The position numbers and the translations under genes are program-made. A stretch of DNA of 64,000 nucleotides from a virus. Below the pieces are notes generated by a model. The model did not search any database and had not been told where the DNA came from. It saw nothing but the letters and a program-made list of their open reading frames with translations. The stretch covers positions 62,001 to 126,000 of the IMG/VR virus record IMGVR_UViG_3300035698_022389. One strand, 5' to 3'. The stretch's first letter is position 1. Each line of letters begins with the position of its first letter. Below, piece after piece: positions 6,062-47,400 of this stretch.

Positions 6062-6775
6062 ATGGCCGACAGACCTCCAATTTTCCGATCATCTTTCATG
6101 TCACCAGATGATGGTTTTGATGAGAACCTTGGGAAAAAACCTGTTGTTTTCGACATCCTTGCTACTGATAAGGAAACCAGTATTCTCCCTGATAACATGA
6201 AGTTGGTTCTGCATGTGAATCCAGAATCAATGGCCATTAATTATGCCAAAATAATAGAACGGATTCCAACCAAAGGTGGCTTCGTCGAACAGCACTTTGG
6301 GGAGGGTTTAGATTCCTTGGAGTTTAATATAGCCACTGGTGGATTCATGCGTTTGTATTCAGGTCTGTCAAATATTACAGGTGGCCAAGGAGCCCTTGAT
6401 GTTGAAGGAACCCGTCGGGAGTCCATTGCTTACGATAAATATTTGGATGTGTTGGCATTGTTTCATAACAATGGCTCTGTTTATGATATCACGGGAAAAA
6501 TTGTGTTTCAGGGATTTATCAGTGTTACGTTTTACGGGGGTATTTACTTAGGAGTATTCAATGATTTCACGGTATCTGAGTCTGCTGATAAGCCTTATCA
6601 GTTTACGATGACAACAAGTTTTACGATTCAATCCGAGATGGTTAGGATACGGACGGATATGACCTACCAAATCCAGGATTCTCTAAGTAGTGAGTCTGGA
6701 ATAGATGCCCCGGATCTCTTGAATCCAGATTATTTGGATTTAGGTCGTCGGGTAGGCAAAAGGGATTGGATTTAG
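6062..6775 (+). CDS. tail tube/baseplate-associated protein, paralogue of the 7064 gene
   Basis: A 237-aa protein. Residues about 48-205 carry a pattern shared with the next gene: a HVNPESMAINYAK-type strand, a GG..E..FGE turn, a helix ending FHNNGSVYD, then a strand series FQGFISVTFYGGIYLGVF and a tail of F.M...FTIQS. Such proteins sit at the tube-baseplate junction in contractile systems (tube-initiator or LysM-linked type), which fits the position after the tape measure; the exact role is inferred. The 3' end is altered by a perfect 32-bp tandem duplication. The present reading ends GKRDWI-TAG, whereas removing one copy gives GKRDLK-TAA, so only the last two residues changed. The ribosome site is weak. 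Confidence 0.6.
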   Translation: MADRPPIFRSSFMSPDDGFDENLGKKPVVFDILATDKETSILPDNMKLVLHVNPESMAINYAKIIERIPTKGGFVEQHFGEGLDSLEFNIATGGFMRLYSGLSNITGGQGALDVEGTRRESIAYDKYLDVLALFHNNGSVYDITGKIVFQGFISVTFYGGIYLGVFNDFTVSESADKPYQFTMTTSFTIQSEMVRIRTDMTYQIQDSLSSESGIDAPDLLNPDYLDLGRRVGKRDWI

Positions 6776-6797
6776 GTCGTCGGGTAGGCAAAAGGGA
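6734..6797 (+). repeat. perfect 32-bp tandem duplication at the 3' end of the 6062 gene
   Basis: Bases 6734-6765 are repeated exactly at 6766-6797, and two further bases (TT) match. The unit begins TTGGATTTAGGTCGTCGG. Because 32 is not a multiple of three, the second copy is read out of frame and supplies the TAG stop at 6773-6775. Collapsing the repeat restores an open end GAT TTG AAA TAA. The repeat abuts the gap that holds the transposon remnant, which suggests, without proving, that the two events are linked. Confidence 0.95.
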
Positions 6798-6823
6798 TTT
6801 GAAATAATTTAACATAATTATAA

Positions 6824-7015
6824 CTTAGTAAGGCACATAAAAGTGGGTTAAAGATGGATCGTGATTTAAATGTTGCAATTAATTTAAAACAACTCGCTGA
6901 AAGTCATTCAGAGAGTATAAATGCTTGTGGAGATGAAAGTTCTGGTCAGTGCGTTGCCCTTTGGGCAAGCAAGGACGAAACTATTATCTATGAAGCAAGA
7001 AATGGCCATTGTTAA
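6824..7015 (+). pseudogene. tnpB: C-terminal remnant of a TnpB-family RNA-guided nuclease
   Basis: From ATG 6854 the frame reads DRDLNVAINL, the RuvC III / zinc-ribbon exit motif typical of TnpB (consensus DRD.NAAIN), which carries a catalytic aspartate. About 15 residues later comes NACGDESSG, matching the ACG(D/E) tail seen near the end of many TnpB proteins, and the fragment ends ..YEARNGHC and TAA. Upstream in the same frame HKSGLKM precedes DRD; the usual zinc-ribbon cysteine appears changed to Ser (AGT), and a stop lies at 6821-6823. RuvC I, RuvC II and the rest of the roughly 400-residue protein are absent, so no nuclease can be made here. A freestanding 53-codon peptide from 6854 is possible, but no ribosome binding site is evident. 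Confidence 0.75.
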
Positions 7016-7029
7016 CCAGTAGGGTTAAC
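7011..7029 (+). repeat. perfect 7-bp hairpin at the presumed right end of the TnpB remnant
   Basis: GTTAACC (7011-7017) and GGTTAAC (7023-7029) are exact inverted repeats around a 5-nt loop. They overlap the tnpB stop codon. In IS200/IS605 elements subterminal hairpins are recognised by TnpA, and the same 3' region forms the scaffold of the TnpB guide RNA (reRNA/omegaRNA). Position and structure fit such a right end, but the family-specific consensus cannot be checked here. No T-run follows, so a terminator is unlikely. Confidence 0.5.
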
Positions 7030-7063
7030 TGTTCAAGTCCTTTATGACTAAAGTGGTGGTGTT

Positions 7064-8452
7064 ATGGCTGAATTAATCACATTAGAGGGGGCTGTAGAAA
7101 GCTCTAAAGCAAAGGGGCCACAAAAAACAGGTGGTGAGGATAGGGCTTTGGTTTCAGCTATGGCCGTGAAAAACCCACCAGCTCCATTAGCCTATCAGTA
7201 TTTGAACGTGGGACCCGAGTTGTCTATTGAGATGGAAGACATTTCAACAGACCAGATTGATAATACTCGTCAAATGCTCCGAAATCTGTCTCCTTTTGTT
7301 ATTCAGATTGAACCACCAGCAGCTTTCCAGTCATATACTTCGGCTCCTAATGCAGCCAATAGCCCAAACATAGGCCTCTATGATATAGCTAACGGGACGG
7401 CATCCAGTTATCAGAAAGCTCGTGAGGCTTTGACTCAAGATTCGTTTTTATCGGGAATCTCCAGTAAACAAACATCAATGAATCCCGAAGAATTTTTAGC
7501 TTCTTCGGGATATAAAGCAGGCAAACTTATTGGGGATTTAAGGGATGTTACCCCTGATAATGCTGACTTATCTCCACGAGGAAGACCTGCCCTACCTGAT
7601 CTTTTGACAGTGATGGATATGCGTCTGCAAGTATCAAATATTCTTAACATCCCACCTCTGGTGTTGTTAATTAACCCAGCATCTTTCCAGATTCAATACA
7701 CTAAAATTCAGCAGTATCAAGACCGTAGCCGGTATGGGTACATCCTCCATACTTGGGGTGAAGATCAGGCCAAGGTTTCATTCACAGCAAAGTGTGGGGC
7801 TTTTATCTCTGGTGGGAGAGGTGTTCATGTTGCCAGCCGGAATGATTCCAAATCCTGGCAAAACATGCAGAACCTGATGAGGTTTTATAAAAATAATGGG
7901 TATATTTATGACACCATGGGTCGATCGAATGCACATCTCCATATAGGATCTTTGTCCATTCGATATGATGGCTTCATCTATTATGGCAGTATGGAATCGT
8001 TCACGTTTGAATTGAACGAGGATAATGAGCTTGGTGGTGTAGAGTTTAACATTGAGTTCACGGCTAATGGGATTCAAGATACGACTCCTGACACGAACAT
8101 TGTTCAGCCTATGAGGGCACCTTTGCCAAGTATTGAAGATCAACGATACATGAATTCAGGTAAAAACAGACCTGGTGAGTATGCTTTCGGGATTGGGAGT
8201 GGCGGGGGCGCTCGTTTAACTACTCAGGGTCGAGAAGTTAGTGCCAGTGATGCTCTTGAGACGTTAATTCCCCATGATGGGGCCGGAGGGGCGGGAACTG
8301 AGCCTGCTGATCCCACGACCATTGGAATGACAGGTGGCATTGCTGACCAGTCAGTAGGAAGTCAGGCTTTCCGGAGCCCCAGTGATGTTGTAAGTGTAGA
8401 TAAAGATGTAGAACAAGGTTCCGTCAACAGTGCAAAACCGTTTGGATTTTAA
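7064..8452 (+). CDS. tail/baseplate protein, paralogue of the 6062 gene
   Basis: A 462-aa protein. Residues about 184-350 repeat the fold pattern of the 6062 product: LLINPASFQIQYTKI, a WGE turn, SFTAKCGAFISGG, then FYKNNGYIYDTMGR, SLSIRYDGFIYYGSMESFTFE and FNIEFTANG. The first 180 residues are a separate region not present in the shorter paralogue. The last 100 are Gly/Ser/Asp-rich and probably flexible. Gene duplication followed by divergence is the natural reading, with both products in the tube-baseplate junction. Only GGTGGTG precedes the ATG. The TnpB remnant lies immediately upstream, so the original spacing to the sister gene, and perhaps the translational coupling, was lost. Confidence 0.6.
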   Translation: MAELITLEGAVESSKAKGPQKTGGEDRALVSAMAVKNPPAPLAYQYLNVGPELSIEMEDISTDQIDNTRQMLRNLSPFVIQIEPPAAFQSYTSAPNAANSPNIGLYDIANGTASSYQKAREALTQDSFLSGISSKQTSMNPEEFLASSGYKAGKLIGDLRDVTPDNADLSPRGRPALPDLLTVMDMRLQVSNILNIPPLVLLINPASFQIQYTKIQQYQDRSRYGYILHTWGEDQAKVSFTAKCGAFISGGRGVHVASRNDSKSWQNMQNLMRFYKNNGYIYDTMGRSNAHLHIGSLSIRYDGFIYYGSMESFTFELNEDNELGGVEFNIEFTANGIQDTTPDTNIVQPMRAPLPSIEDQRYMNSGKNRPGEYAFGIGSGGGARLTTQGREVSASDALETLIPHDGAGGAGTEPADPTTIGMTGGIADQSVGSQAFRSPSDVVSVDKDVEQGSVNSAKPFGF

Positions 8453-15665: not shown

Positions 15666-18600
15666 ATGAGTAACTTTAACGGAAAAGTATTAGAGGGTGT
15701 TCGGCAATCACCTGTAAATTCCCCTACGACAAATGAACCTGGGGCTGGTGTTATTCGAGATATTCGAGGATTGCCTGCTAACTATATATTGTCTGCTCCT
15801 CCTTTGATTTGTGCCACTGCTGACCAGTATCGTGTTGCTGCTCTGGATGCCCCAGGTTCAACTATTGTGGAATATCTGGTTTGGGCACAGAACTCATCCC
15901 AGTTGGCTACCGTAGATGATGCAAGTTGGTGGACTACAGGTGGGGTTGGAAATATCTCAATTGGGGATCTGGAGGTTATTGCTTATCCAGGGTCAGATCA
16001 GGAACTTTACATGGATGGAACTGCTAATGTCATCGTTGTAGATAATGGCAATCGTTCTATTGGTTCGATTTCATGGCTGGTTGTGGCTCGTGGTGATGTG
16101 GAATATGATGATGATGGTTGGGATGATGTTGATAACCCTTCTATTCCCAGGAAAGGCAGTAATCCTTATTTAGCCTTTGAGATTGACCTTAACAATCAGA
16201 ATCCTGTATCTGGGATGGTAACTTTAACACCCTCTCAGTTAGTTCAGCTTGATGGAGGTTTATCTATTGAGCGTGGTGATAGAATTATTCAGCCTCGGTA
16301 TACGGTGGCTGCTCCACGTTTTTGGTGGACTCGGAACGACCGATATGAAAAACGATTTGGATGGGATGCATCACTTCAACGGTGGGAACCTTGGAAAGGA
16401 TCAGGGGTCAAGAATCTAGGGTACCTCCTGTTAGAGGAGGCTTCATTTACAATGGACCCAAAACTTCAGAATTTCCCTCTCGGAGCTTTCTTGCCTGGTG
16501 ATGCCACACCCGGTGGGGAAGATAAATATTCGATGATTAGATTGGGGACAGACCCTGGTATCACAAGTATTCCAGCAGGACCAGGGGGTGACTTTATTGG
16601 AATTCAGGTAAAACCTGATGATGCTGTTGAGGATTTTGATTTTAGTGTTGCTCCAACTCTCACTGGTGTCATGGGACAAACCAACGGGAAATTAGTTTTT
16701 AACCCAACCTATGTGAACTTACATGCAGGAAAATCAGTTTGGTATTCTTACAAGGGTTTCTCTAAGGATGAGGATGGTATCATTGGAAGTATTCAAGATG
16801 CTTTAACTTCTGACTTGTTTCTTGCTCCTCTTCCTGGCCCGACTGATGCTCTTTTGCTCCGATACGGGAACCGAAGTTACCTAGATTCGGTGACTTTTGC
16901 AAACGATGCATCATTACAAGCTGAGGTTGCCACCAATGGTGACCCTGATGAAGGACAGATTTACCTTTCATTATCTACTGGGCGGTTGGTACTTAGTCCT
17001 GTAGATTTGGGCAAAGCCAACCCAGGTGACCCAAACACATTCTCTAAGTATTATTTGGGAGATGGTTTGGTTTATGATGGTGTTTCACTTTGCCAACGCC
17101 CTCAACCAACTCGTTCTCCTGTCAAACTTTTGGCTGAGGATGGTGATCCAACAGAGGATGCAGATGAAATATTTATGCCAGAGGCCGAATATCTTCCTGG
17201 GACATACCACTCAGTAGATTGGAATAATGCTTATAGAGGGCTTGGTATTTCAGGCATCTTGAATGTTTCTGATGAAACTGGGTCTCTCCCCTTGCCTGGT
17301 GATGTCCCTGTTCGTCCCGGTGGTGATAATTCCTATGGGGGTGGGGTAGACCCACTTGTAACAGACCCAAATGTCGGAATGGTTCGTCGTTTGGAAGATG
17401 GGGTGAGTGACCTTATTATTTTTGGTAAAAATCATGCTATTACATTAACACGATCGTATAGAATTCCTGATGACAAGCCTTCCCGAATTCGGGGTGGTAA
17501 TGCCTATGTTTGTCTTCAGGTAGAAGGTACTGACCCTGGTTCTCGGGTGGAGATGGGGCGGTATGATAGGCAAGAACTGGATGGGGATTTCATTTATTTC
17601 CTTCAGGCAGCCTTGACCCCAGCCACATTTACAGCAGAAGCTAAACTCTATTCCCGTAACAGAGACATTTTCCGTTTCGATGGGGATGAGATTCTTTACT
17701 TTGCAGTGGACGGAGTTCCATATCAGTGGTCTTCCAGTGGTTTAGTGGCAGGATATCCTGACCAGTCTTCATTTACGGCAGAAGAAGTGGTTGCCGATAT
17801 GGCCACTATTGCAACTCTCCCTGCTGGTTCTGTGGTAGAGCATCTTGGTCGAATCCTTATTACAGGTACAGCTTCAGTAGAGATTGGTTGGGGCGGGACA
17901 ACTAAAGACCTGAGTGGCTCAGCTGTCCTTGGATTCCTCCCTGGATGGCTGGCTGTTGAGGGTGAACCATGTTGGTTGCCTGATTCCGGTGTTAGTGTGG
18001 GGCTGTTCCGTAGCCCTGTGAATCAAGACAGATCAAAGTCTACTGCTGATTTTGCTTACGTTGATAGGATTAGGGATGGATTATTGAGTGAAAGTCTTCA
18101 GCCAAATCCATACTTCTTTCTTCAGAATCCTCCATTGCAAGATATTGCTGGGTATGGTGAAAATTTCTTTTTCCAGTTGGTGAATTACATCATCGATGGG
18201 GATGACATTCAGATAATTTATAAGAATCTGGAGCATTATAAAGACATCATTTATCGTTTTGGTCAAAAAAAATTCGATTGGGTAGACGAAGGTTCCTATC
18301 AGTTGCCTGTGGAACGTGCATTGAACATCTTGGATTTAGGGTCAGCAGGTGTAGTCCCTGAATCTATGATGGGTGCTCCTGGAATTCCAGGTGCTCTTTA
18401 TGTGAACACAGGGGAAGGTGGCCTTGTTTTACAGTATCAGGATGACGATTATATTCTCCCATTTGGGGGTATTCCTGGAAATGCTACTCTTATTCATCGT
18501 TTTGGTCGTCGGGTAATGTTCGGTGCTCAGGGGGTGTTTACTGATGGTTCCACTACGTTTACAGATGCTAATGCTGATTTTAATGATCCTGACAAACAAG

Positions 18601-21600
18601 TATTGCCAGGTTACCGCCTTAAATTGACGGCTGGTGATGCCAAAGGTTCCTATGTTGTCGAGAGTGTGGATTCAGATACTTCTTTGACTGTTTCTCCTGC
18701 ATTCCTCTGGACTTCAGAGTACCCTACAACTTGGGAATTATTTGAAGGTTATACCCGAGATGTTTATGACCCGATGATTGTGGCTGATATGCTGTACAAA
18801 GAATTCAGTCCCTTGTCAGAAGAACCCTTCAAAGTTCGGGTTTTGTCATATCTAGGCCTTGTTCCCGAAGATTCTTCGGCACAAACTACAGGACGTTTGA
18901 TGGCAAATGTTGAAGGAGCTTTGTCTAGTAACAGGCCAATCAACCTTCGATACAAGCCAGAGGCTCCAATAGCGGAAAACACAGTAGGTTTGTCATGGCT
19001 GACAAAAGTGGGTATTGGGGTCATGGAAAATGGTGCCCAAATCATTCCTGACGTAACATCCATTCGATTTACATCAAAGGCATTTAGTATTCAAATCGGG
19101 ACGGTCGTTTACAGTCATGGTGATTTAACATACCCTTTGGAGGGTGTTTTGTCCTTCAGCAATGATCCTGGTACTTCTGTGGAGTATTTGACAGTAGACG
19201 CAGATTTCCCGAAAGGGATGCTAAAATTTGGTTCAGGCGTACTGAGTACATATGCTGAGAGTCATGTGTTGGTGAAAGGTGAATTCCTTGACCCCACATA
19301 TCTGGCTGCTTTGCATGGAGAATTAAGTCCTTGGACAGGTACCGTGAACCTTTCGGATACAGACTTAGCTGCATTTGCTGGGGAACGAACTTATTTTGTC
19401 GAGCAAATGGATACTAAGAAGGATTTATCTGTTCAACCAATGAGTGGAAGTTGTGCATTCCTTCGACCTCTCCCGAAAGGTGTGTTGGTTGAGATGGAAT
19501 ATTATGGGGCTGATTTGGAAGGACGGAAACTGCAATATCCTGTCTTGTCCTTAGAGGGTGAACCCACGGGGATGACAGAACCTCGTCAGATTACAGAGTT
19601 TCTGCCTGTGTTCATCCGAGATGAGATTGCAGTAAGAGAAAGCAACAGGGTTTTCACATTCAATATTGCAAGTAATACCGTCTATCAGGGCATCGACCCT
19701 ATTATTTATATTCGGGCAGCCCAGCAGAATTATAACGAAACTAATTGTGTGATTGATTATCTTCCTGATGGCCGAGGCCAAATTACCTTCCTCACGTATG
19801 ACGTGACGGAGGGGGTAGATGTGAAAGTCACTTATGCCGTTGCCGAGTCTCAAGGTGGAGAACGAGCATATGAAACCAGTATTAAGCCCGTCTACCGTCC
19901 TCCATTTTACATCACTGCTAATCAGAATCGGTTTGGTATTCGTGGTGACAGAACAGGTGAGTTTGAAGCAGGCCAGATGCTTCGGTTTGGAAAAGAAAAT
20001 TTCTACGTCAAAGACACCAGATATTACCCTGAGATAACGGATTCTGATGGAAACGTCACTGGGGATATTACCGCAGTTTATATTTACCCAAATACAATTC
20101 AGGAGGTCGGTACAAGGGCACCTGCTAGGGACATTCTTGCCCTCCAGACATTGATGCCTATTACCCCCGTGGTTGACCCACAAGGAACAACACCTGTAAA
20201 TACGGGTGCCAATGCAGGTTTGATGTATAATGTGGACATCACAGAATTCCCTTTTGAGCCAATGAATCGTGGGCAAACGGACATTGTGTTTACTGGAAAC
20301 CTGACGTTCCTGGCAGTTCCAGGGCATGTTATTGAATTTGGTGGTGTGCCTTACACTATTGTGGGATCCTCATTATCTGATGATGGTTCTCGGACAGTTG
20401 TTTCGGTTGCTTCTGGCATCCGTCGGGCATTTGAGATGGCCCAGGAACCCACAATCCGACTTACTTACCGTCCTATTTATCCTCCTAACGTGGTAGATTT
20501 ACTGGGGGTTGGAGCTTTTGTGCCCGAAGAAGGGTATGAGTTGGTGCAGTATGGTTTGATGAATGATGATGGGGATGAACTTCCAGGTAAGTCTTTAGTG
20601 AATACCGTTGATTACATATTTGATGTGGGGAACGGGAAAGTTACACTTTTGGAACCCATTCAGGAACCGTTGAATGTTCCTGAATCTCTAGTCATGTCAT
20701 TCGTGCGACTCAGGCAGCTTGCTCCTTACGTGGAGAATGGGGCAATTGTCCGACCTACATATTCAGCTAGTTACCTGAATTCTATTGCTCCGAATAAAGA
20801 CAATGATTTGTTGGGAGCAACTCTCCGTGGGACATATACGTTCAGAAGCCCAGACACTTTCTATTTCCGAATCGTCCCGATGTCTCAGTTTCTGGTGGAG
20901 GTCACGACGGAAATCATAGATGAAATCTCCAATCAACAGCCTGCCAGTGGGGCACCCAAGCCTTCTGGTGGGGACGAGAACTGGGACTTTGGCCGGATTG
21001 GTCTGAAGACAGAACGTCGACACTTGATCAACAAAGACCGTGTAGCTCGAACTTTCCTGGATTTTTATAATGTGGCCACCAATTCCTTTGAACAGATTCA
21101 AGAAACTGTTAGCGGTGACATCGTGGGTGACAGAGATGGTAAGTTCCGATTCTGGATTGGTCATGGAAAAGAATGGCCGACACCAGGGTATGAAGATGAA
21201 ATTACAGGGGATTTAACCCCCCGGAATGTCTGGACAGAGGTTTTCTCTGCATTTGCTGATAATGATCCTATCCGATACGTTTATGTTCAATCTTATGATA
21301 AACTCGTGAATCCCGAGTCATACGGAGTTAAGGATTCAGAATTACTTGGAGGTGTCCCAGACATTGACATTTTGAATTTGATGATGGATACTCAGAAAGA
21401 CCTCGTGACCAATGAGGTAGATGATGTTGTTTTAACTCGATTCTGGGCACAATTTAAACAAAAACATGGATGGCCTTACTTCTATTTCATCTTGAAGGGG
21501 CGGTTCCGTAGGATGTACGAGAACCATAAGTTTTCTCGTATATTCCCTCGATGGACAAAAACATTCCTTCGTACCAATCCTGGCATCGAATCTGATTTGG

Positions 21601-24600
21601 ATGCTGAGGAACCTGGTTGGTATTCAGCAGGCCGTTATGATTCTGAGGGCGAGTATCGTCGGACGAGCCAGATGGCCATTGGGCAGGTAGCAAATCCTGT
21701 TCTTGGTGACATTGGTGGAATTCATTCCTTGTTTCTGACTAAACGAATGGCCAGGGCCCGAATTTGGCAATATTATCCAAATGGTATTCCTGAAGGTTCC
21801 TTTGGATTGGTGGGGGTATCTCCTTCTCCAGCCATCGAAGTTCCTTGTGTGATTGCAACTCCTGGCTGGATTCGGGATTTCCCGATAGACCCCTCAACAG
21901 GATACCCTGATAAAGTTCAATTCTTGAGTAATGCAGGCGACTTTCCAGACTTGGAAACGGGTGACCCCGAAATGGCTACCCCTCCTTTCATTATTGGAGA
22001 GCAGCTTGGCTGGGGTAAACCTGATGGTAGAGTAGCTGAAGCATATTGTGGTTCCCTATCCAAGAAGTCTGGTGACATCAATAATGCTATGACCGGTTTG
22101 TTTGTCAATGAAGTCCTGTATGGTTGTGTCCTTACGTTCCAAGATGCTGATGGGGATATTGTCACTGATCCAAATAATGTTTTGGTTGGAACTTCTCCAA
22201 CAACAGGCACATTAGCGGAAGATTATTTGGAATTGGGTGACACGGTTCAATCTGTTCCCGTCTCAGGTACCTCTGAGATAAGTAATCCTCCGACGACTGA
22301 GGATATGGAATTGCTGGCTGATAATTCCAGTGTGTATCGTTCGGGTTTTGATGTCAGGCATGCTCAGGATGGCCAATTGCTGGATGTGACGTTGCCCTCT
22401 AAATATGATCCTGTTTTCTGGAACTGGAAAGAAATCTTTGGCCAGAACCCACCACCGCCTCTAACGTGTTTGGAAGGTTCCGTGGAGTTTTACTATGAGG
22501 GTCAGAATCCTCTCCTGATTCCAGCTCTTGAAGGACTGCCACAGGATGATTCAGGTGATTACCATGTTCCATTCCTTCGAGTGACAAACACGGAATTAGA
22601 TAGATACAATGAAGGGGTCATCCTGGCGGATATGCTTAAAGTGGATGACCGAGGTCCATTACCGTGGGGGTTGTACCCTGACGAGTGGTTGGGGAATGAT
22701 GGTTGTGTGACGACCATCCCACCTGATGGCACCCAAGCTTCTATCGTTCCTGCTGATGAACCTGCAACGTTGCTGACGGCTACTAACACACAACCGAAGG
22801 CTACCGTGGCCTCAGAGGAACCTGGTACGGCAGATTTGGATGAATATGACCTGATGTTTATGCAGGTTGAGGGGACAAGCCCGTTTACTAAGCTTGGTGT
22901 CGCTATGAAAGGTCCAATGGGAATTCAATCTGTTGGTCGTATTGTTCCTCGAAATAGTTCCTGGAATTTAGGGCCAGAGGGTCCAACGACAGGGGATGGT
23001 TCGATGATTGAACCTCCTAGGTTCGTTACTCAGACAAAGCTAGGTTCCCCGATTCGATACAAAATCGAAAATGCAATGGTGAGTGATATTCAAGGGATAC
23101 CCCCCTACAATGGAGTGCAGTTACGCACTTATGATTCTTTACCTTTGCCTGCACATTACATAGTGTTGGATTTCACCAGTATTAACATTGATATGAGTGG
23201 CTTGGATGCTATTTATACAGCGTCTAGTGAGAATAAAATTACAGTTAAACTCATATCACATGATGACTCTACCTCTATCATTGGTCCAAGTGGGGTAGCT
23301 GCTCCAGTCCCAGGATCAGTTTTGTTGACATTGGACATCCAACAAAGCACAGGTCTGACAGTTACGAATTATGTTGACCCTCCGGTGACAACGGCAAATT
23401 TGGTTAATGCCCAGTTTGGAATAGACGGGATTGTGATTGCAGCACTTCTTGGTATAAACCCTGCAGATTATATCCCAGGGGACACTCGGTATATTTTACT
23501 GACATTCACTAGCCTTAGTTCTCCGTTGATGGATTTAATTTGGGATGTTCCGAACCCTCCAGTTGGCTCAATAGTCCGTCCAGATTGGTTTATCCCTTAT
23601 GCTGTGCTTGATTACTTAGGGGATCTTTATACCCAAGCTGATTATGGGATGGATTTTGTATTTGACGTGGACACATACAATACGGCAGGGGCAACAGGAG
23701 AATCCACGACAGCATATATTGGTTCCGACCGGTTAACTTTTTACGAAAATATTGATTTTGATTTGGCTCGGGAACGTGGTGCAGTTCATAGTTTGAACCA
23801 TCTCACTGAGTTGGAAACCCAACTGTCCATTTATGAAGTGACCGTTGGGCACGACAGTGTAACCACATATTCTTCTACTATCAACACATTCTGTAATGGG
23901 GAAAGCGCAGGAAACCCTGTACCGTTTACATTCCTCCCACGAGATGGTGTCGTTGCAACCTCTGGTTCTCTTGTCGTCCACGGTTTTGAGGGTTATGATG
24001 GAGCCACGGGGAATTTCCCCATTATTGGTAATCAGGCAACTTTTGCAGGAGCAGCTTCAAACGATCGATGCAAGCTTTTACCGTACTTGCCCGTTTATGG
24101 GAGTATTTGTAAAGGGATTGGGGTGATGGAGAGCCGGTTCGATTCGAGCTTGCTTCCTGCTGTACCCGTACCTCCCCCTTACCCGCCGATTCCTGGTACG
24201 CAGCATCCAGCAGCTTGGTTTTACGATAATCGAGTAACTGAAATCGATCCAACTTCATTATTGTCAGAGGGTGTCGTTACTCGGGTTGAATCTGGGGACA
24301 TTTTGGTTGTCAAACAAGATGTCAACGGTGAAGCCACCACGAAAGCTGGAACTTACTTGGTTAGACATGCTATTCCACAGTACGATCCTGTCCTAGCTCC
24401 CGCAGCTTATTGGTGGTGGTCTGCTCCATCTGCTGTTGCTGGTAATGAGAATGGCTGGTGTCCTGTACATTTCCCAACAGTAGTGGGGTACGATGAAGCT
24501 ACTCATAAATTAACTATTTCTGACCCAGCTTTAATCCTAGCTGTTGAAGAAGGTAATGCTGTTGATGGTTATCCTAAAGACTGGGAATATGGGTTTCCAG

Positions 24601-27446
24601 AACCCGCATTAATACCCGGACCTGGTACGTATACGTTTGTGTATATCATCAGGAATGCTGAGGGGCTTTCAACAGCTGATCCTGGGGGTAGCTTGGGGGA
24701 CGTTGGGTTTGATGCAGCTGTTACAACTTACAAAGAGTCGATTCTCCGGCTTCAGTATACAGATATCAACATTGTTTCTGGTCAGTGTGTGCTAGATATT
24801 TCCCCTCTTAGTACAGTCACAGATGCTTGTTATGTTGGGGGTGATCCTGCAGCAGTTTTGGGGTCTGCAAATGACCCTATTATTTGGACGAATGCTGAAT
24901 TAGCTGCTCTTTTAGATGATGCTTATCAAGTTTCGGGTATGAAAGCATGGCCAGTTAACGTTTCAGGTGAAAATTATGGTTTACCTGCAAACAATGTAGT
25001 TGGCTATGATGATGTGGATGTTGTTGTGAATGGCTTTGAGAGGTTTTATTTTGATAGTCGTTTAACAGACACAACCCCCCAGCTTTGGGTTGCTGATACT
25101 TTGGCTCCTGCCCCTTATATAAAATCAACACTATCAGCATTGGGTTCTAATGAAGTATTCCCTATGATTTATACCCCAGATCCTAGTACTGATTTCTATG
25201 AGGACAAGACTACCCCCGTTTACCATGTGGTTGCCTGTACTATTGTGAATTCCATAGATGAGGCAACTTGGGAAACTTTAGATTGGCCAACAGGTTCTTC
25301 TTACATTGGACGAGATGTAGCAATGCCGAATTTTTATGGTCATTGTCTGCTTCCTGCTTCTCATTTAACATTAGCAGATCCTTCTCAAGATCCTATACTT
25401 CACCCCGATTGGTATAACGGCCACCGAGCACATTCAGGTATTTTCCTGGAGCCGTCAGTTCCACGGCAGGCATTGAATCTGATTGCTGACCACCCTAGAG
25501 TGGTGGATGCCAACGATTCTTTACCTGACCCAGAACTTTTGGCAGACTTAGATAGGGAAATTGGAGCCCGTAGTTCTGATTCTTATGGGACTTTTGCTGG
25601 AGTTGCTCCTGTTCATACTACACCGTCGGCAGTAGTATTTGAGATACGGCGTATTCGACGTTTCCATGATATTCAGAATGTTAACTTGAAGTTGGCACCT
25701 CTCAGATTCGTTTATGAAATACGACGTGGCCGAATCACAGGCTATGATACAAGCTCCACCACAACAGGACAACGAGGGATCGTTGAAGCCCTTGAATTCG
25801 TGATGGATTTCGACCCTGTACCTCATGTGTCGGGTCAATCAAAGACTCCAGATGTATGGAACGATGGGATAGAATATACAGGTACAAACCTCGGGCCTTT
25901 CCTGAATACCTATCTAACTTATCTAACTCCCAACGAAAATGTTAACGTTAATGCTGGGGATATGTTTAGGCTTTTGGATGATGATGGGACAGTATTGGAA
26001 GAAATTCGTATTGAGAGAGTTCTTAATGCCAGTACACTTCAACTGGCTGCTCCTGGTCTTGTTACCAAGACCCCAGCTGAGTTGGCAGCACCAGGCGGCA
26101 AGATGAGGTTTGAGATTTATTTAAGAAAAGCTCCAGTTCCTTTGGAACAGTCTGTCGAAGAATTGTTTGAACTAGTCACTGACAGAGAGATACTTCGGAC
26201 TGATGCTGAGTGGGGTGATACTAATGCTGAGGAATTAGGGGGCTATGTCCCAGAACTTGGGACTGATACTTGGGAGGATGTGGCTAATCATCTGTACGAT
26301 GATCTGAATGTGGCCGCTGGTGTTAATACTTTCGGTGACCTGGGTATCCTTAAAGGTGACATTGTGATTGTAGACCCATTAGGGAAAGTTCCTCAGCGTT
26401 CCGGTCCAAGTCCTTACATTCAGGAACGTGGGATGCGTCCTATTGGGGATATGGGTGTGGTTGGCCGAGTAGGTTACCAGAGTGGGGCAGCCGCAACGTC
26501 CAATCAATACGTTGCAGGTTATCCAGATACTCGTGATGATAACCGAGGTTACTATAGGGTCACTACAATAGATGATACAGGGACACCATTTTTAGAGCTA
26601 ACTGGGGTCTCTACATTCTCTGGGGATGTTGATGAAGATGTGGTGTTCGATTCTACGGATGTTGAACGAGCCTATGCTGTTTACCCAACCGTGCATTTGT
26701 CTCAGTTGAATCCAGCTTCTGATGAAGGCCAGATGGATTTACGACCAACGAAGAAGCGGGTGGCCGACAAGTTTACGACTGATTTTAATTCCATCAGGCC
26801 ATTCTCGTATAGAGTTATCCGACCTTCATCATTGTTCTCGGATGAAACTGTTGATTTGGTTTTGATGATGCGTGAACGGCTTTTGTCTCTCATTGAATTA
26901 ATTGGTAGGGGATTTGAAGGTAAGAGTGGTGATTACTGGGCATTCCAGAAATATCTTCACATTGAAGACCTAGGTTCTACAACGAATGCTGAAGATGGCC
27001 TCGGAGTGTTGTCAAATCTATTCCTGTTATCTGTTCTTGGACGGACTGACATTTCTCCATTCCTGAATAATTCCTCTTGTATTTCCATCCTTGACCGACG
27101 ATTTTGGGTGATGGACCCCAGATTGGATACTTTGGCTCCAGCCCGAGCAGCAGATAATAATCCATTCGGCATGAGGCCTGTTGAGGCATCGGTTGACTAT
27201 CCTTACACTGCCTATAATGACCGTATAGGAGGGAAGGTTCGTCCTGTACAGCCAGACAGGATTGATGATGCTCTTGATCAACGTGACCGATTCCGACCGA
27301 TTCGGTATGTGTGGCTGGCTTACAGAACACACAGAATACTGGGTTCATTGGCTGCTATTAATAGATTTGATATGGAATACGTCCAGCGTCGTGCCGAGCA
27401 GTTAGCACTTCTGCTGAAGCAGGACTCCTTGGAGAAAATAACATGA
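15666..27446 (+). CDS. giant virion structural protein (3926 aa), probable baseplate component
   Basis: The reading frame is open for 11.8 kb with consistent codon use and no internal stops. The protein is beta-rich, with many Asp, Gly, Pro, Tyr and Val residues, and few helices until the end. One clear module (about 955-1015) has the form GVFTDGSTTFTDANADF, PGYRLKLTAGDAKGSYVVESV, then SLTVSPAF, a beta motif also echoed in the 36207 product (GEILTFTVGPNSGFYRL). Cysteine is rare. The last 250 residues become helical and basic (ETVDLVLMMRERLLSLIELI, YVQRRAEQLALLLKQDSL). No enzyme motif was recognised. Between spike and gp25-like wedge genes it is most likely a baseplate or wedge protein. Its stop overlaps the next ATG (ATGA). 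Function is inference. Confidence 0.6.
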   Translation: MSNFNGKVLEGVRQSPVNSPTTNEPGAGVIRDIRGLPANYILSAPPLICATADQYRVAALDAPGSTIVEYLVWAQNSSQLATVDDASWWTTGGVGNISIGDLEVIAYPGSDQELYMDGTANVIVVDNGNRSIGSISWLVVARGDVEYDDDGWDDVDNPSIPRKGSNPYLAFEIDLNNQNPVSGMVTLTPSQLVQLDGGLSIERGDRIIQPRYTVAAPRFWWTRNDRYEKRFGWDASLQRWEPWKGSGVKNLGYLLLEEASFTMDPKLQNFPLGAFLPGDATPGGEDKYSMIRLGTDPGITSIPAGPGGDFIGIQVKPDDAVEDFDFSVAPTLTGVMGQTNGKLVFNPTYVNLHAGKSVWYSYKGFSKDEDGIIGSIQDALTSDLFLAPLPGPTDALLLRYGNRSYLDSVTFANDASLQAEVATNGDPDEGQIYLSLSTGRLVLSPVDLGKANPGDPNTFSKYYLGDGLVYDGVSLCQRPQPTRSPVKLLAEDGDPTEDADEIFMPEAEYLPGTYHSVDWNNAYRGLGISGILNVSDETGSLPLPGDVPVRPGGDNSYGGGVDPLVTDPNVGMVRRLEDGVSDLIIFGKNHAITLTRSYRIPDDKPSRIRGGNAYVCLQVEGTDPGSRVEMGRYDRQELDGDFIYFLQAALTPATFTAEAKLYSRNRDIFRFDGDEILYFAVDGVPYQWSSSGLVAGYPDQSSFTAEEVVADMATIATLPAGSVVEHLGRILITGTASVEIGWGGTTKDLSGSAVLGFLPGWLAVEGEPCWLPDSGVSVGLFRSPVNQDRSKSTADFAYVDRIRDGLLSESLQPNPYFFLQNPPLQDIAGYGENFFFQLVNYIIDGDDIQIIYKNLEHYKDIIYRFGQKKFDWVDEGSYQLPVERALNILDLGSAGVVPESMMGAPGIPGALYVNTGEGGLVLQYQDDDYILPFGGIPGNATLIHRFGRRVMFGAQGVFTDGSTTFTDANADFNDPDKQVLPGYRLKLTAGDAKGSYVVESVDSDTSLTVSPAFLWTSEYPTTWELFEGYTRDVYDPMIVADMLYKEFSPLSEEPFKVRVLSYLGLVPEDSSAQTTGRLMANVEGALSSNRPINLRYKPEAPIAENTVGLSWLTKVGIGVMENGAQIIPDVTSIRFTSKAFSIQIGTVVYSHGDLTYPLEGVLSFSNDPGTSVEYLTVDADFPKGMLKFGSGVLSTYAESHVLVKGEFLDPTYLAALHGELSPWTGTVNLSDTDLAAFAGERTYFVEQMDTKKDLSVQPMSGSCAFLRPLPKGVLVEMEYYGADLEGRKLQYPVLSLEGEPTGMTEPRQITEFLPVFIRDEIAVRESNRVFTFNIASNTVYQGIDPIIYIRAAQQNYNETNCVIDYLPDGRGQITFLTYDVTEGVDVKVTYAVAESQGGERAYETSIKPVYRPPFYITANQNRFGIRGDRTGEFEAGQMLRFGKENFYVKDTRYYPEITDSDGNVTGDITAVYIYPNTIQEVGTRAPARDILALQTLMPITPVVDPQGTTPVNTGANAGLMYNVDITEFPFEPMNRGQTDIVFTGNLTFLAVPGHVIEFGGVPYTIVGSSLSDDGSRTVVSVASGIRRAFEMAQEPTIRLTYRPIYPPNVVDLLGVGAFVPEEGYELVQYGLMNDDGDELPGKSLVNTVDYIFDVGNGKVTLLEPIQEPLNVPESLVMSFVRLRQLAPYVENGAIVRPTYSASYLNSIAPNKDNDLLGATLRGTYTFRSPDTFYFRIVPMSQFLVEVTTEIIDEISNQQPASGAPKPSGGDENWDFGRIGLKTERRHLINKDRVARTFLDFYNVATNSFEQIQETVSGDIVGDRDGKFRFWIGHGKEWPTPGYEDEITGDLTPRNVWTEVFSAFADNDPIRYVYVQSYDKLVNPESYGVKDSELLGGVPDIDILNLMMDTQKDLVTNEVDDVVLTRFWAQFKQKHGWPYFYFILKGRFRRMYENHKFSRIFPRWTKTFLRTNPGIESDLDAEEPGWYSAGRYDSEGEYRRTSQMAIGQVANPVLGDIGGIHSLFLTKRMARARIWQYYPNGIPEGSFGLVGVSPSPAIEVPCVIATPGWIRDFPIDPSTGYPDKVQFLSNAGDFPDLETGDPEMATPPFIIGEQLGWGKPDGRVAEAYCGSLSKKSGDINNAMTGLFVNEVLYGCVLTFQDADGDIVTDPNNVLVGTSPTTGTLAEDYLELGDTVQSVPVSGTSEISNPPTTEDMELLADNSSVYRSGFDVRHAQDGQLLDVTLPSKYDPVFWNWKEIFGQNPPPPLTCLEGSVEFYYEGQNPLLIPALEGLPQDDSGDYHVPFLRVTNTELDRYNEGVILADMLKVDDRGPLPWGLYPDEWLGNDGCVTTIPPDGTQASIVPADEPATLLTATNTQPKATVASEEPGTADLDEYDLMFMQVEGTSPFTKLGVAMKGPMGIQSVGRIVPRNSSWNLGPEGPTTGDGSMIEPPRFVTQTKLGSPIRYKIENAMVSDIQGIPPYNGVQLRTYDSLPLPAHYIVLDFTSINIDMSGLDAIYTASSENKITVKLISHDDSTSIIGPSGVAAPVPGSVLLTLDIQQSTGLTVTNYVDPPVTTANLVNAQFGIDGIVIAALLGINPADYIPGDTRYILLTFTSLSSPLMDLIWDVPNPPVGSIVRPDWFIPYAVLDYLGDLYTQADYGMDFVFDVDTYNTAGATGESTTAYIGSDRLTFYENIDFDLARERGAVHSLNHLTELETQLSIYEVTVGHDSVTTYSSTINTFCNGESAGNPVPFTFLPRDGVVATSGSLVVHGFEGYDGATGNFPIIGNQATFAGAASNDRCKLLPYLPVYGSICKGIGVMESRFDSSLLPAVPVPPPYPPIPGTQHPAAWFYDNRVTEIDPTSLLSEGVVTRVESGDILVVKQDVNGEATTKAGTYLVRHAIPQYDPVLAPAAYWWWSAPSAVAGNENGWCPVHFPTVVGYDEATHKLTISDPALILAVEEGNAVDGYPKDWEYGFPEPALIPGPGTYTFVYIIRNAEGLSTADPGGSLGDVGFDAAVTTYKESILRLQYTDINIVSGQCVLDISPLSTVTDACYVGGDPAAVLGSANDPIIWTNAELAALLDDAYQVSGMKAWPVNVSGENYGLPANNVVGYDDVDVVVNGFERFYFDSRLTDTTPQLWVADTLAPAPYIKSTLSALGSNEVFPMIYTPDPSTDFYEDKTTPVYHVVACTIVNSIDEATWETLDWPTGSSYIGRDVAMPNFYGHCLLPASHLTLADPSQDPILHPDWYNGHRAHSGIFLEPSVPRQALNLIADHPRVVDANDSLPDPELLADLDREIGARSSDSYGTFAGVAPVHTTPSAVVFEIRRIRRFHDIQNVNLKLAPLRFVYEIRRGRITGYDTSSTTTGQRGIVEALEFVMDFDPVPHVSGQSKTPDVWNDGIEYTGTNLGPFLNTYLTYLTPNENVNVNAGDMFRLLDDDGTVLEEIRIERVLNASTLQLAAPGLVTKTPAELAAPGGKMRFEIYLRKAPVPLEQSVEELFELVTDREILRTDAEWGDTNAEELGGYVPELGTDTWEDVANHLYDDLNVAAGVNTFGDLGILKGDIVIVDPLGKVPQRSGPSPYIQERGMRPIGDMGVVGRVGYQSGAAATSNQYVAGYPDTRDDNRGYYRVTTIDDTGTPFLELTGVSTFSGDVDEDVVFDSTDVERAYAVYPTVHLSQLNPASDEGQMDLRPTKKRVADKFTTDFNSIRPFSYRVIRPSSLFSDETVDLVLMMRERLLSLIELIGRGFEGKSGDYWAFQKYLHIEDLGSTTNAEDGLGVLSNLFLLSVLGRTDISPFLNNSSCISILDRRFWVMDPRLDTLAPARAADNNPFGMRPVEASVDYPYTAYNDRIGGKVRPVQPDRIDDALDQRDRFRPIRYVWLAYRTHRILGSLAAINRFDMEYVQRRAEQLALLLKQDSLEKIT

Positions 27447-32685: not shown

Positions 32686-35600
32686 ATGACAACAGAAGAT
32701 ACAAGAACACCAAAATTCTATGGGCCTGACAATGTTCTCCGATCAGAATATATTTTCTCAACGGATTTGTCATTTCGTTCATTTTCAGGGACTGTTGATG
32801 CAGACACCATAGATGTACAGGTTTCGCTTCGAAACGGGGCTTTCTCATCTGATCCTGACATGGTTTCATTTGAAGGAACCTCTTTCTCGGTCCCTAATCC
32901 TGCAGCTTTCCCTGAAGGACTTCAACTTCTTCCTGGGGAAAATATCATTTCAGTCCGTGCGGTTATGTCCAATGGGGATACCTCTCCAATTGGGTCTATT
33001 CAGGCTAATCTATCTTTAGAACGGGATGTAAAGGCAGGTGTGGTTGCTCCTAGTGGTATCTATGTTGAGCGTTTGGATAGCAAAGTTCAAGTTTACGTGG
33101 ATGGGCTTGAAGATACCAATGTGACAGGATATTTGTTCTATGCTTCTACGGAAGCTGGTGGTGGAGCAACAGGATACAAACGTATTTCAGTAGGTTCTGT
33201 GATCTCTGGGGAAGTTTATGAGAAAATTACTTCTCTTGGGGAATTAGATTTGGATGCAAATGTGCTTCGGAACGAAGATGGAAGCTTGGTTGCTGAACCT
33301 CAGTATATCCATTTGGTTAGCACTCAAGAAGACAGGGCAGGTGAGGTTCTTCAGACGGATATGAACCAACGTATCAGTATGCCTGATACATTGACTCAAT
33401 TCAGAGCCAATATGGTGTTTGACGGAGTGCAGGAGTTGAATCGGTTTTCTTTCATCCATAATCGTAAAGCTACGGCTAGTTTGACGGAAGCTTATCCTGC
33501 AGTTCCACACTCAGAATTTGCAGCCACGCTGGACACAGATCCCTTGTATTATGTGGTCACTGCTCTGTATTTGATTGACGGGAAAGAGTATGAGTCGTCT
33601 TATTCCCCTGAAGTTGGGGCAACTCCTATTATCGTGTCGCCTTTGGTGTCTGCATTACCAACAGTATCTAGGCAACAAATTGTTAAAAATGTTGCCTCGT
33701 CTATTTATCGATCACATCCAGAATTGGATATTAAACCAGGTACGATGATTAGAGATACTTTTGTTGACCCGTTCTCTAGTGAAGCTGAACGTATCCGGTT
33801 TATTTTGGGGTTCATTCAGTCTTGTCAGGCATTTTCAACCCTGTTGGATATTGATGACCCAAACCAGACGGGTATTTCCATTACTGTGAATAATTCACCC
33901 TACAAATTGGCCTTGAAACAGGCTTTTTATCTGCAATCCAACACGGATGTGCAGAATATGATTGACAATGCTTTTGATAAACTGGCCTCCCAGCGGGGTG
34001 TTGTCCGTAACATTGGCCGACGTTCTCGTGGTGAAGTTGTAGCTTATGTTACAGTCAAACCGACCACATCTATTTTTATCCCATTGGGAACAATTGCCTT
34101 TGCAGGTAGCCAGCAGTTTCGAACCACTTCCACTGGTTACATTACTTCAACAGGAATAGGGTCATCTTATAACCCTGTAACTGGTCGCTATTTTACCCAA
34201 TTGTACGTACAGTCCGTGAATCCTGGGAATGATGGCAACGTGGCTGCTGGACAGATTCGTGCATTTCAGAGTGGACCCCAAGGTGTTCTTTGTTATAATG
34301 ATGTTCCAACCTACGGAGGTAGGGATATTGAAACTAATCGTCAGTTAGCCACTCGTGCCGATGGAGCATTATCTGGTGTAGATACGGGAACTTACCGTGG
34401 GTATGTGCAGACTACGAATAATATCAGTGGGGTCCTGGAGTCTACCGTGGTAGATGCTGGCCATTCTCTGATGCTTCGGGATATCAATCCTGAAACTGAT
34501 CAGCATACAGGCGGTAAAGTGGATGTGTGGATTCAAGGTGAGAATTTGGCCTCTATCAGGGACAGTTTTGCTTTCTCTTTCGAAATTGTGAATTTTGGGC
34601 AGTTCGAGCCTGTAGGTGCCATTGCTGACCTTAAATTCAGGGCAGTTAATGCTAATCTCTCGGTAGATAACCCTCTTATGGAAATGTTGGATAATGAAGC
34701 CTGGGGATTCAAGTTCACAGATGACACGACGGGTAAAATATTTGATTTGACGGATGTGGAAATTCCGACCTTTGACACCATTCAGTTATCCACTATACAC
34801 AATGATCCAGCCAACAGTGCCTTGACGGATGTTTTCCGAGGGTCTTATCGTTACCGTACCAGTAATAAATATGTGTTCCAACGTCAGCCAGCACGTTCAA
34901 TTACGAGCCTTGTGGGTTCAGTTACAGGCTCTGTAGACGAAAGTTATTTTAAGCTATTTGCAGGTAGCCCTCCTTTGGATTTAGGTCGTTCTACTGAATC
35001 TGGGGATTATATACAAATTATACAGCCTATTTTAAATTTTCTTCGGATTCCTTCAGGTGATCCCATTGTGGTATCAGATGAGAGGCATGTCCTTTTGGAA
35101 GGGATTGAATATTTGGATAATTTGGGAATCAACCCGATTACCGTTCGGGTGTTCAATGTAGAGAGAACTGTTGAATATTATGGTCCTTATTATCCTGATG
35201 TAGAACCTGATTTTACATTGGTAGATGAGGTAGGGGATTATCCTTTAGGCTTTAAACCAACTTCTTTGAGTCGGATGACGGAGGGGGAGGAAGTATCTGT
35301 AGATTATAGTCATGATGAGAATTTTGTTGTGACCTACGAAGTCAATTCCTTGATTGGAACAGCTCAACAGGATTTGGATGGGACTCGAAATATCATGGCT
35401 GATGTATTGGCTAAAGATTCTCTCCCAATCGGGGTGGATATTACGGCTACTGTTGTGACCAAGAAGAACAATAGCGTCTATGTGGTGGATAGTGATATCC
35501 GAACTCAATTGGCCAGGTTATTTGGAATCTTTAATTTGGGTACTCCTGTACGGCAATCTGATATAATAGGAGCCATTGAACTTGTCGATGGTGTTTCCTA

Positions 35601-47365: not shown

Positions 47366-47400
47366 TTTGCCTGAATATGATAACCGATAGAAGGTGAGAT

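What the first reader, a model, noticed from the sequence alone, without database searches (positions are those of the whole stretch)
6824..7029. Decayed TnpB 3' end lodged between two sister tail genes
The 6776-7063 gap encodes DRDLNVAINL and, 15 residues on, NACGDESSG, the signature end of TnpB, the RNA-guided nuclease of IS200/IS605 elements. Only the RuvC III / zinc-ribbon end is left, and one zinc-ribbon cysteine appears to be Ser. It sits in an operon whose other tail genes are nearly gapless. Either an element inserted and decayed, or only this 3' part, which in intact elements also encodes the guide RNA scaffold, was kept. A selfish nuclease element in a core virion operon is unusual because most insertions there would be lethal.
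Basis: partly seen in the sequence, partly recalled or inferred. Interest (0 to 1): 0.68.

Follow-up and report, generated by a model that had tools for sequence, protein, structure and literature searches.

The report
Decayed TnpB element repeated in phage
The gap between two phage tail genes holds the two ends of a broken TnpB element (the RNA-guided nuclease ancestor of Cas12), and the same element litters this phage about a dozen times, always with its middle deleted, so this is the wreckage of a burst of a selfish element inside a virus rather than a working gene.

Summary
The TnpB 3' end is real: the 57-residue frame matches an intact phage TnpB (79% over 34 aa, E 2e-16). The true unit is 6785-7050. 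It keeps a left end, a scrap of the tnpB start, an internal deletion, the tnpB 3' end and a right end containing a weak RAGATH-18-like guide-RNA scaffold. It is not solitary: about a dozen copies or end fragments lie in the same record (132.9 kb) and in a 54.6-kb contig that probably continues it. All are core-deleted, with different breakpoints where these could be compared. Three related phages lack the insertion, so the empty site is defined: insertion at GG(G)-TA in the last two codons of the upstream tail gene, TA present at both ends. An intact relative (393 aa) sits in another phage, with a similar right end. Ends here are 19-nt inverted repeats (including TA), unlike textbook IS200/IS605 or IS607, and no transposase was found. 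The 'Cys to Ser' change is a deletion-junction artefact. The insertion was tolerated because it replaced only the terminal residues, supplied a stop and left the next start. Best reading: a relic of a TnpB-only phage element that once multiplied; how it moved is unresolved.

The parts
6062..6775 (+). Upstream tail gene (237 aa); its C-terminus ends RVGKRDWI* instead of RIK* because of the insertion and a later 32-bp duplication
   Evidence: ORF; relatives end ..LGNRIK*..LGKRIK*..LGRRIK*; duplication
6734..6797 (+). 32-bp tandem duplication (6734-6765 / 6766-6797) that includes gene 3' end plus first 13 nt of the element's left end
   Evidence: 100% identity of the two copies
6785..6803 (+). 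Left end, inverted-repeat arm TAGGCAAAAGGGATTTGAA, TA first
   Evidence: same arm at G000 34701, 47366, 132122 and G001 40893
6804..6842 (+). Left-end interior and remnant of the tnpB 5' region (AAGGCACATAAAA = codons K-A-H-K); start codon lost
   Evidence: alignment with copies G000:47366 and G001:40893
6843..7015 (+). tnpB 3' remainder (RuvC III end DRDLN .. NACGDESSG), stop 7013-7015; core (about 330 codons, by comparison with L063) deleted at 6842/6843
   Evidence: translation; 79% to intact TnpB; comparison
6924..7001 (+). RAGATH-18-like guide-RNA scaffold segment (weak match); stem CUUG/CAAG where the family has CCUG/CAGG
   Evidence: top Rfam hit, full model 1-71, 21.7 bits, E 0.17, 0.39, below the 44.9-bit gathering score; same place in L063 22.6 bits and L017 29.7 bits E 0.0011
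7011..7029 (+). 3' hairpin GTTAACC-AGTAG-GGTTAAC of the presumed scaffold
   Evidence: sequence; loop varies (AGTAG/CGTTT/CGTCT) while the few stem changes in other copies remain G-U pairs, read by eye
7032..7050 (+). Right end, inverted-repeat arm TTCAAGTCCTTTATGACTA, TA last
   Evidence: same arm in other copies
7049..7068 (+). Putative guide position (flank directly after the right end)
   Evidence: inferred from OMEGA anatomy; first 16 nt match the empty site of G002 14/16
7064..8452 (+). Downstream sister tail gene (462 aa), start intact

Best explanation
A core-deleted copy of a TnpB-only element that inserted at a GG(G)-TA site in the last codons of a phage tail gene and then lost about 1 kb of tnpB. 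When intact, the element would have encoded a roughly 400-aa TnpB whose 3' end doubles as the guide-RNA scaffold. By general OMEGA logic, the guide (flank after the right end) would direct TnpB to cut the allele lacking the element, so that repair copies it in. It multiplied in this phage lineage, probably after divergence from G002-G004, then the copies decayed independently by internal deletion. Shown: TnpB identity, empty site, copy number, different breakpoints, end structure. Inferred: guide-directed retention, and excision/insertion by a transposase acting in trans (most likely an IS607-like serine transposase using TA as overlap dinucleotide).
For: TnpB match. Copies: 47366-47842, 57425-57634, 131962-132122 in the same record at 85-92%, end fragments at 34701 and 130650, and about six copies or fragments in G001. 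Empty sites in three relatives reading GGATAAAGTG at the window locus; GGGGTA or AGGGTA at three more loci, aligned by eye and less secure. GG precedes TA in 6 of 7 left flanks, chance about 3e-7 (background frequency 0.061, flank list assembled by eye). Breakpoints differ between copies B, D, F and I. RAGATH-18-like match in window, L063 and L017. A scaffold block of about 25 nt is identical between this family and L063 although it is read in a different frame. Intact relative L063 with OrfB_IS605, TNB and HTH domains. Related IS607-type elements with a serine TnpA beside the same TnpB clade (L014; L017). RAGATH-18 was reported to co-occur only with IS607 TnpBs (PMC11061315); overlap-dinucleotide model in PMC4058570.
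Against: No transposase of Resolvase, Y1 or DDE_3 type and no OrfB_IS605 domain was found in G000-G004, so mobility is unexplained. IS607 elements are described as lacking terminal inverted repeats and using GG (PMC6188088). NCBIfam scores L063 higher as IS200_TnpB (349 bits) than IS607_TnpB (275 bits), both below their cut-offs. RAGATH-18 scores are below the gathering threshold, and the other phage copies did not reach E 3.
Confidence: 0.82

Rival explanations
1. A TIR element of the IS630/Tc1-mariner type (TA duplication, about 17-bp inverted repeats) that carries TnpB as its only gene and is moved in trans by a DDE transposase, as in Fanzor-only mariner elements of eukaryotes.
For: Inverted repeats 18/19 in copy B and TA at both ends of most copies; single TA in the empty site; eukaryotic precedent SPu-1: one Fanzor ORF, 33-bp TIRs, putative TA TSDs, 17 full-length copies (PMC3627910).
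Against: No DDE_3 transposase in G000-G004 (only this one DDE model tested); the intact relative L063 shows no exact inverted repeat of its right end upstream of tnpB; GG preference before TA fits IS607/TAM logic better.
Confidence: 0.25
2. The right-end remnants are kept as orphan guide RNAs that work with a TnpB supplied in trans (domesticated scaffold).
For: Several copies keep 140-230 nt of the scaffold end plus a flank that would serve as guide; in D and L the first 16 nt of this flank match the empty site of a relative 14/16.
Against: No TnpB found in the phage contigs; right ends are not clearly favoured over left ends (about 10 versus 7 by my count, weak fragments included); scaffolds are themselves eroded in copies E, G, H, J, L.
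Confidence: 0.08
3. An IS200/IS605 (Y1) element that inserted into the loop of a pre-existing repeated palindrome (TTGAA|GTCCC), so that the arms belong to the target and not to the element.
For: The right end has a hairpin followed by TTCAA, as in IS200/IS605 ends (own knowledge); the arms together would form a 33-nt hairpin.
Against: L063, at a different site, shares TTCAAGTCCCTT at its right end, so those bases belong to the element; the window's empty sites contain no palindrome.
Confidence: 0.05
4. A conserved small phage gene unrelated to TnpB.
For: 53-aa ATG ORF present (6855-7015).
Against: Absent from three relatives, where the two tail genes are only a few bases apart.
Confidence: 0.01

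Closest known systems
IS607-family elements with RAGATH-18-derived guide RNA (reRNA) TnpBs
   Same: TnpB near 390 aa; RAGATH-18-like segment near the 3' end (weak); GG next to the insertion point; relatives L014 and L017 encode a serine TnpA
   Different: No tnpA in the 45 nt or so between left end and tnpB in copy B; inverted-repeat ends and TA instead of GG; scaffold overlaps the coding sequence
PATEs and core-deleted IS605-type elements of Haloquadratum (PMC3119063)
   Same: Terminal-only relics left by deletion of a TnpB core, many per genome; copy B's deletion lies at what appears to be a direct repeat (GGGTTTATGAA)
   Different: PATEs lack terminal inverted repeats and target duplications; here arms and TA are present, and the host is a phage
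SPu-1 and other Fanzor1-only TIR elements of eukaryotes (PMC3627910)
   Same: A TnpB homologue as the only gene, TIRs, TA at the ends, multiple copies
   Different: Bacterial-type TnpB, in a phage, all copies here broken
IS200/IS605_NA elements of eukaryotic viruses (PMC6004678)
   Same: Expanded non-autonomous copies with TIRs, TnpB-only partner
   Different: Different viruses (Baculoviridae are named in the passage read), 10-bp TIRs

Membership tests
TnpB (OMEGA RNA-guided nuclease) | Sequence homology over the retained part | tested here: met
   79% over 34 aa to an intact TnpB, E 2e-16; that TnpB hits OrfB_IS605, TNB and HTH and solved TnpB structures such as 8bf8, E 1e-63
TnpB (OMEGA RNA-guided nuclease) | Complete RuvC active site and zinc ribbon in this copy | tested here: not met
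   Core deleted at 6842/6843; no OrfB_IS605 domain in G000-G004
TnpB (OMEGA RNA-guided nuclease) | Guide-RNA scaffold at the 3' end | tested here: inconclusive
   RAGATH-18 E 0.17 / 0.39 here, 0.054 in L063, 0.0011 in L017; none in the other phage copies
IS607 family | Serine transposase TnpA | tested here: not met
   No Resolvase domain in G000-G004; present in relatives L014 and, by sequence, L017
IS607 family | No terminal inverted repeats, GG overlap | tested here: not met
   19-nt arms, TA at both ends; definition from PMC6188088
IS200/IS605 family | Y1 TnpA, no TIR, no target duplication | tested here: not met
   No Y1_Tnp in G000-G004; arms and TA at both ends
IS630/Tc1-mariner | TA duplication and TIRs | tested here: met
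IS630/Tc1-mariner | DDE transposase | tested here: not met
   No DDE_3 in G000-G004; one may act in trans from elsewhere, and other DDE models were not tested
PATE | No terminal inverted repeats, no target duplication, near-terminal palindromes | tested here: not met
   Inverted-repeat arms and TA present; definition read in PMC3119063

The most novel reading that the evidence does not exclude
A TnpB-only mobile element of phages with TIRs and TA ends, a prokaryotic counterpart of Fanzor-only TIR elements, that amplified to about a dozen copies within one phage lineage by guide-directed copying plus a transposase in trans, its leftover scaffolds still able to guide a TnpB against phages lacking the insertions.
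Probability: 0.12. Interest if true: 0.75.

Novelty: new variant of a known kind. Interest (0 to 1): 0.5.

Why it matters
Most transposable elements reported in viruses are said to have one or two copies per genome (PMC6004678, a survey whose text does not mention phages). A TnpB-only element with about a dozen relics in one phage would make the copy-in-and-decay history of RNA-guided nucleases readable in a virus, with empty sites in sister phages. The TIR and TA ends blur the line between IS607-type and mariner-type carriage of TnpB/Fanzor, so this family is a place to ask which enzyme moves TnpB-only elements.

Tried and rejected
Phage DNA collection: no match to the gap. Rfam gathering thresholds: none in the window. 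IStron/group I intron: no Rfam intron hit, and tnpB begins about 45 nt from the left end in copy B, leaving no room. Search for other holders of the family in IMG/VR by end pattern and by the 25-nt scaffold block: only G001 and L063's contig; L012 has a single 18-nt match, compatible with chance by my own rough estimate. GTDB genomes: one relative, L017, not a copy of this element. Distant DNA searches of phages and plasmids with the L063 element gave only partial matches to other TnpBs. Empty site for L063: no relative found. Empty sites for copies A, B, C, F, G, H, I, J: homologous regions too diverged or not examined in detail. I did not build an RNA model, test covariation formally, make a TnpB tree, or predict a structure.

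Full report
Observation. Frame 6842-7015 reads SGLKMDRDLNVAINLKQLAESHSESINACGDESSGQCVALWASKDETIIYEARNGHC*. The 57-aa piece has no Pfam or NCBIfam hit of its own, but it aligns to an intact 393-aa TnpB in L063 at 79% over 34 aa, E 2e-16.

Anatomy. The element runs from 6785 to 7050. The left arm TAGGCAAAAGGGATTTGAA is 6785-6803 and the right arm TTCAAGTCCTTTATGACTA is 7032-7050. Between them lie a scrap of the tnpB 5' region (AAGGCACATAAAA), a deletion breakpoint at 6842/6843, and the tnpB 3' end. Compared with copy B (G000:47366-47842), the breakpoint falls inside a zinc-ribbon Cys codon, which explains the apparent Ser. The arms match 15/19 in the window copy and 18/19 in copy B.

Copies. DNA search of the record found three more large pieces (92%, 91%, 85%). 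A scan for the arms added end fragments at 34701 and 130650. A second contig, G001 (54.6 kb), carries further copies or fragments at 7519, 16948, 40893, 41588, 49210 and 52328. A profile search ranks the strong copies far above background; the fragment at 7519 is weak (E 0.1), and those at 130650 and 34701 are short. Relatives G002, G003 and G004 have none by pattern or DNA search. I count about twelve places, of which some are fragments. G001 probably continues G000: both are collinear with successive parts of G004, the contig ends share a repeat, and tetranucleotide correlation is 0.964. This is an inference.

Decay. The breakpoints of B, D (the window), F and I differ, so those deletions were independent. 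In B the deletion appears to lie at a direct repeat (GGGTTTATGAA) and leaves an in-frame 142-aa ORF that hits HTH_OrfB and, weakly, TNB. No copy is full-length and no OrfB_IS605 domain was found in G000-G004.

Insertion site. Three relatives have the same two genes a few bases apart: GGCAACAGGATAAAGTGAGGGTGTTATGGCT (G002), with G003 and G004 alike. The window has CGGG before TAGGC and TA before AAGTGGTGG. So the insertion fell at TA, TA is now at both ends, and the upstream gene's RIK* became RVGKRD... with a stop from the element and duplication. At three further loci G004 shows GGGG-TA or AGGG-TA, aligned by eye. GG precedes TA in 6 of 7 left flanks, against 0.061 expected (p about 3e-7). 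The left end of copies C and K is lost or unrecognisable, and the final TA of copy H is altered.

Guide-RNA scaffold. The window's best Rfam match is RAGATH-18, full model, 21.7 bits, E 0.17, 0.39 in a larger search. It is below the gathering score of 44.9, so weak. Support comes from the same hit, at the same place, in L063 (22.6 bits) and L017 (29.7 bits, E 0.0011), a C-G to U-A change kept paired in the outer stem, and a scaffold block of about 25 nt identical to L063 though read in another frame. The remaining phage copies did not reach E 3. RAGATH-18 has been reported to co-occur only with IS607 TnpBs (PMC11061315).

Relatives and mobility. L063 is an intact tnpB-only relative: its right end shares TTCAAGTCCCTT, but no exact inverted repeat of it was found upstream. 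L014 and L017 have TnpBs of the same clade beside a serine TnpA of IS607 type. No Resolvase, DDE_3 or Y1 domain was found in G000-G004. IS607 elements are said to lack terminal inverted repeats and mostly to use GG (PMC6188088), with insertion through an overlap dinucleotide (PMC4058570). TA in that role is my inference. The other reading, a mariner-like TIR element with TnpB as cargo, has a eukaryotic precedent in SPu-1 (PMC3627910). NCBIfam does not settle IS200 versus IS607 TnpB here.

Verdict. A decayed TnpB element, correctly spotted, but one of about a dozen in this phage and not a unique lodger. It is informative for its copy number, its clean empty sites and its unusual ends. There is no evidence that the window copy does anything now.

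Noticed in passing
window 15666-27446: A 3926-aa ORF in the same operon; not examined
   Followed up: no
window 6734-6797: 32-bp perfect tandem duplication across the left junction of the element, changing the upstream gene's stop
   Followed up: partly
L008:14701-15170 (G000 34701-35170): Left-end remnant in a gene that in G002 encodes a longer protein; just downstream an ORF with intein-like motifs (TTQDHSLF, VAHN) follows a very short leader
   Followed up: partly
L015 5162-8749; L013 553-1965: A helicase-like ORF (1195 aa) and a methyltransferase-like ORF of G001 appear to hold intein-like insertions; read from sequence only
   Followed up: no
L014 3548-6179: IS607-type tnpA followed by a 276-aa ORF (possibly a homing endonuclease; not searched) and then tnpB
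   Followed up: partly
G000 57385-57426 (L010): Copy C ends in tandem CCTTATGACTAAGA-like units; copy F has a short internal duplication (GGTCACAGGTCAC)
   Followed up: no
G001 16948-17520: Left-end-like and right-end remnants flank a gene of about 440 bp (deoxyribosyltransferase-like by sequence, not searched); cargo or two separate copies
   Followed up: partly
G000 132613-132879: Tandem repeat at the record's right end, shared with the end of G001, probably where the assembly broke
   Followed up: partly
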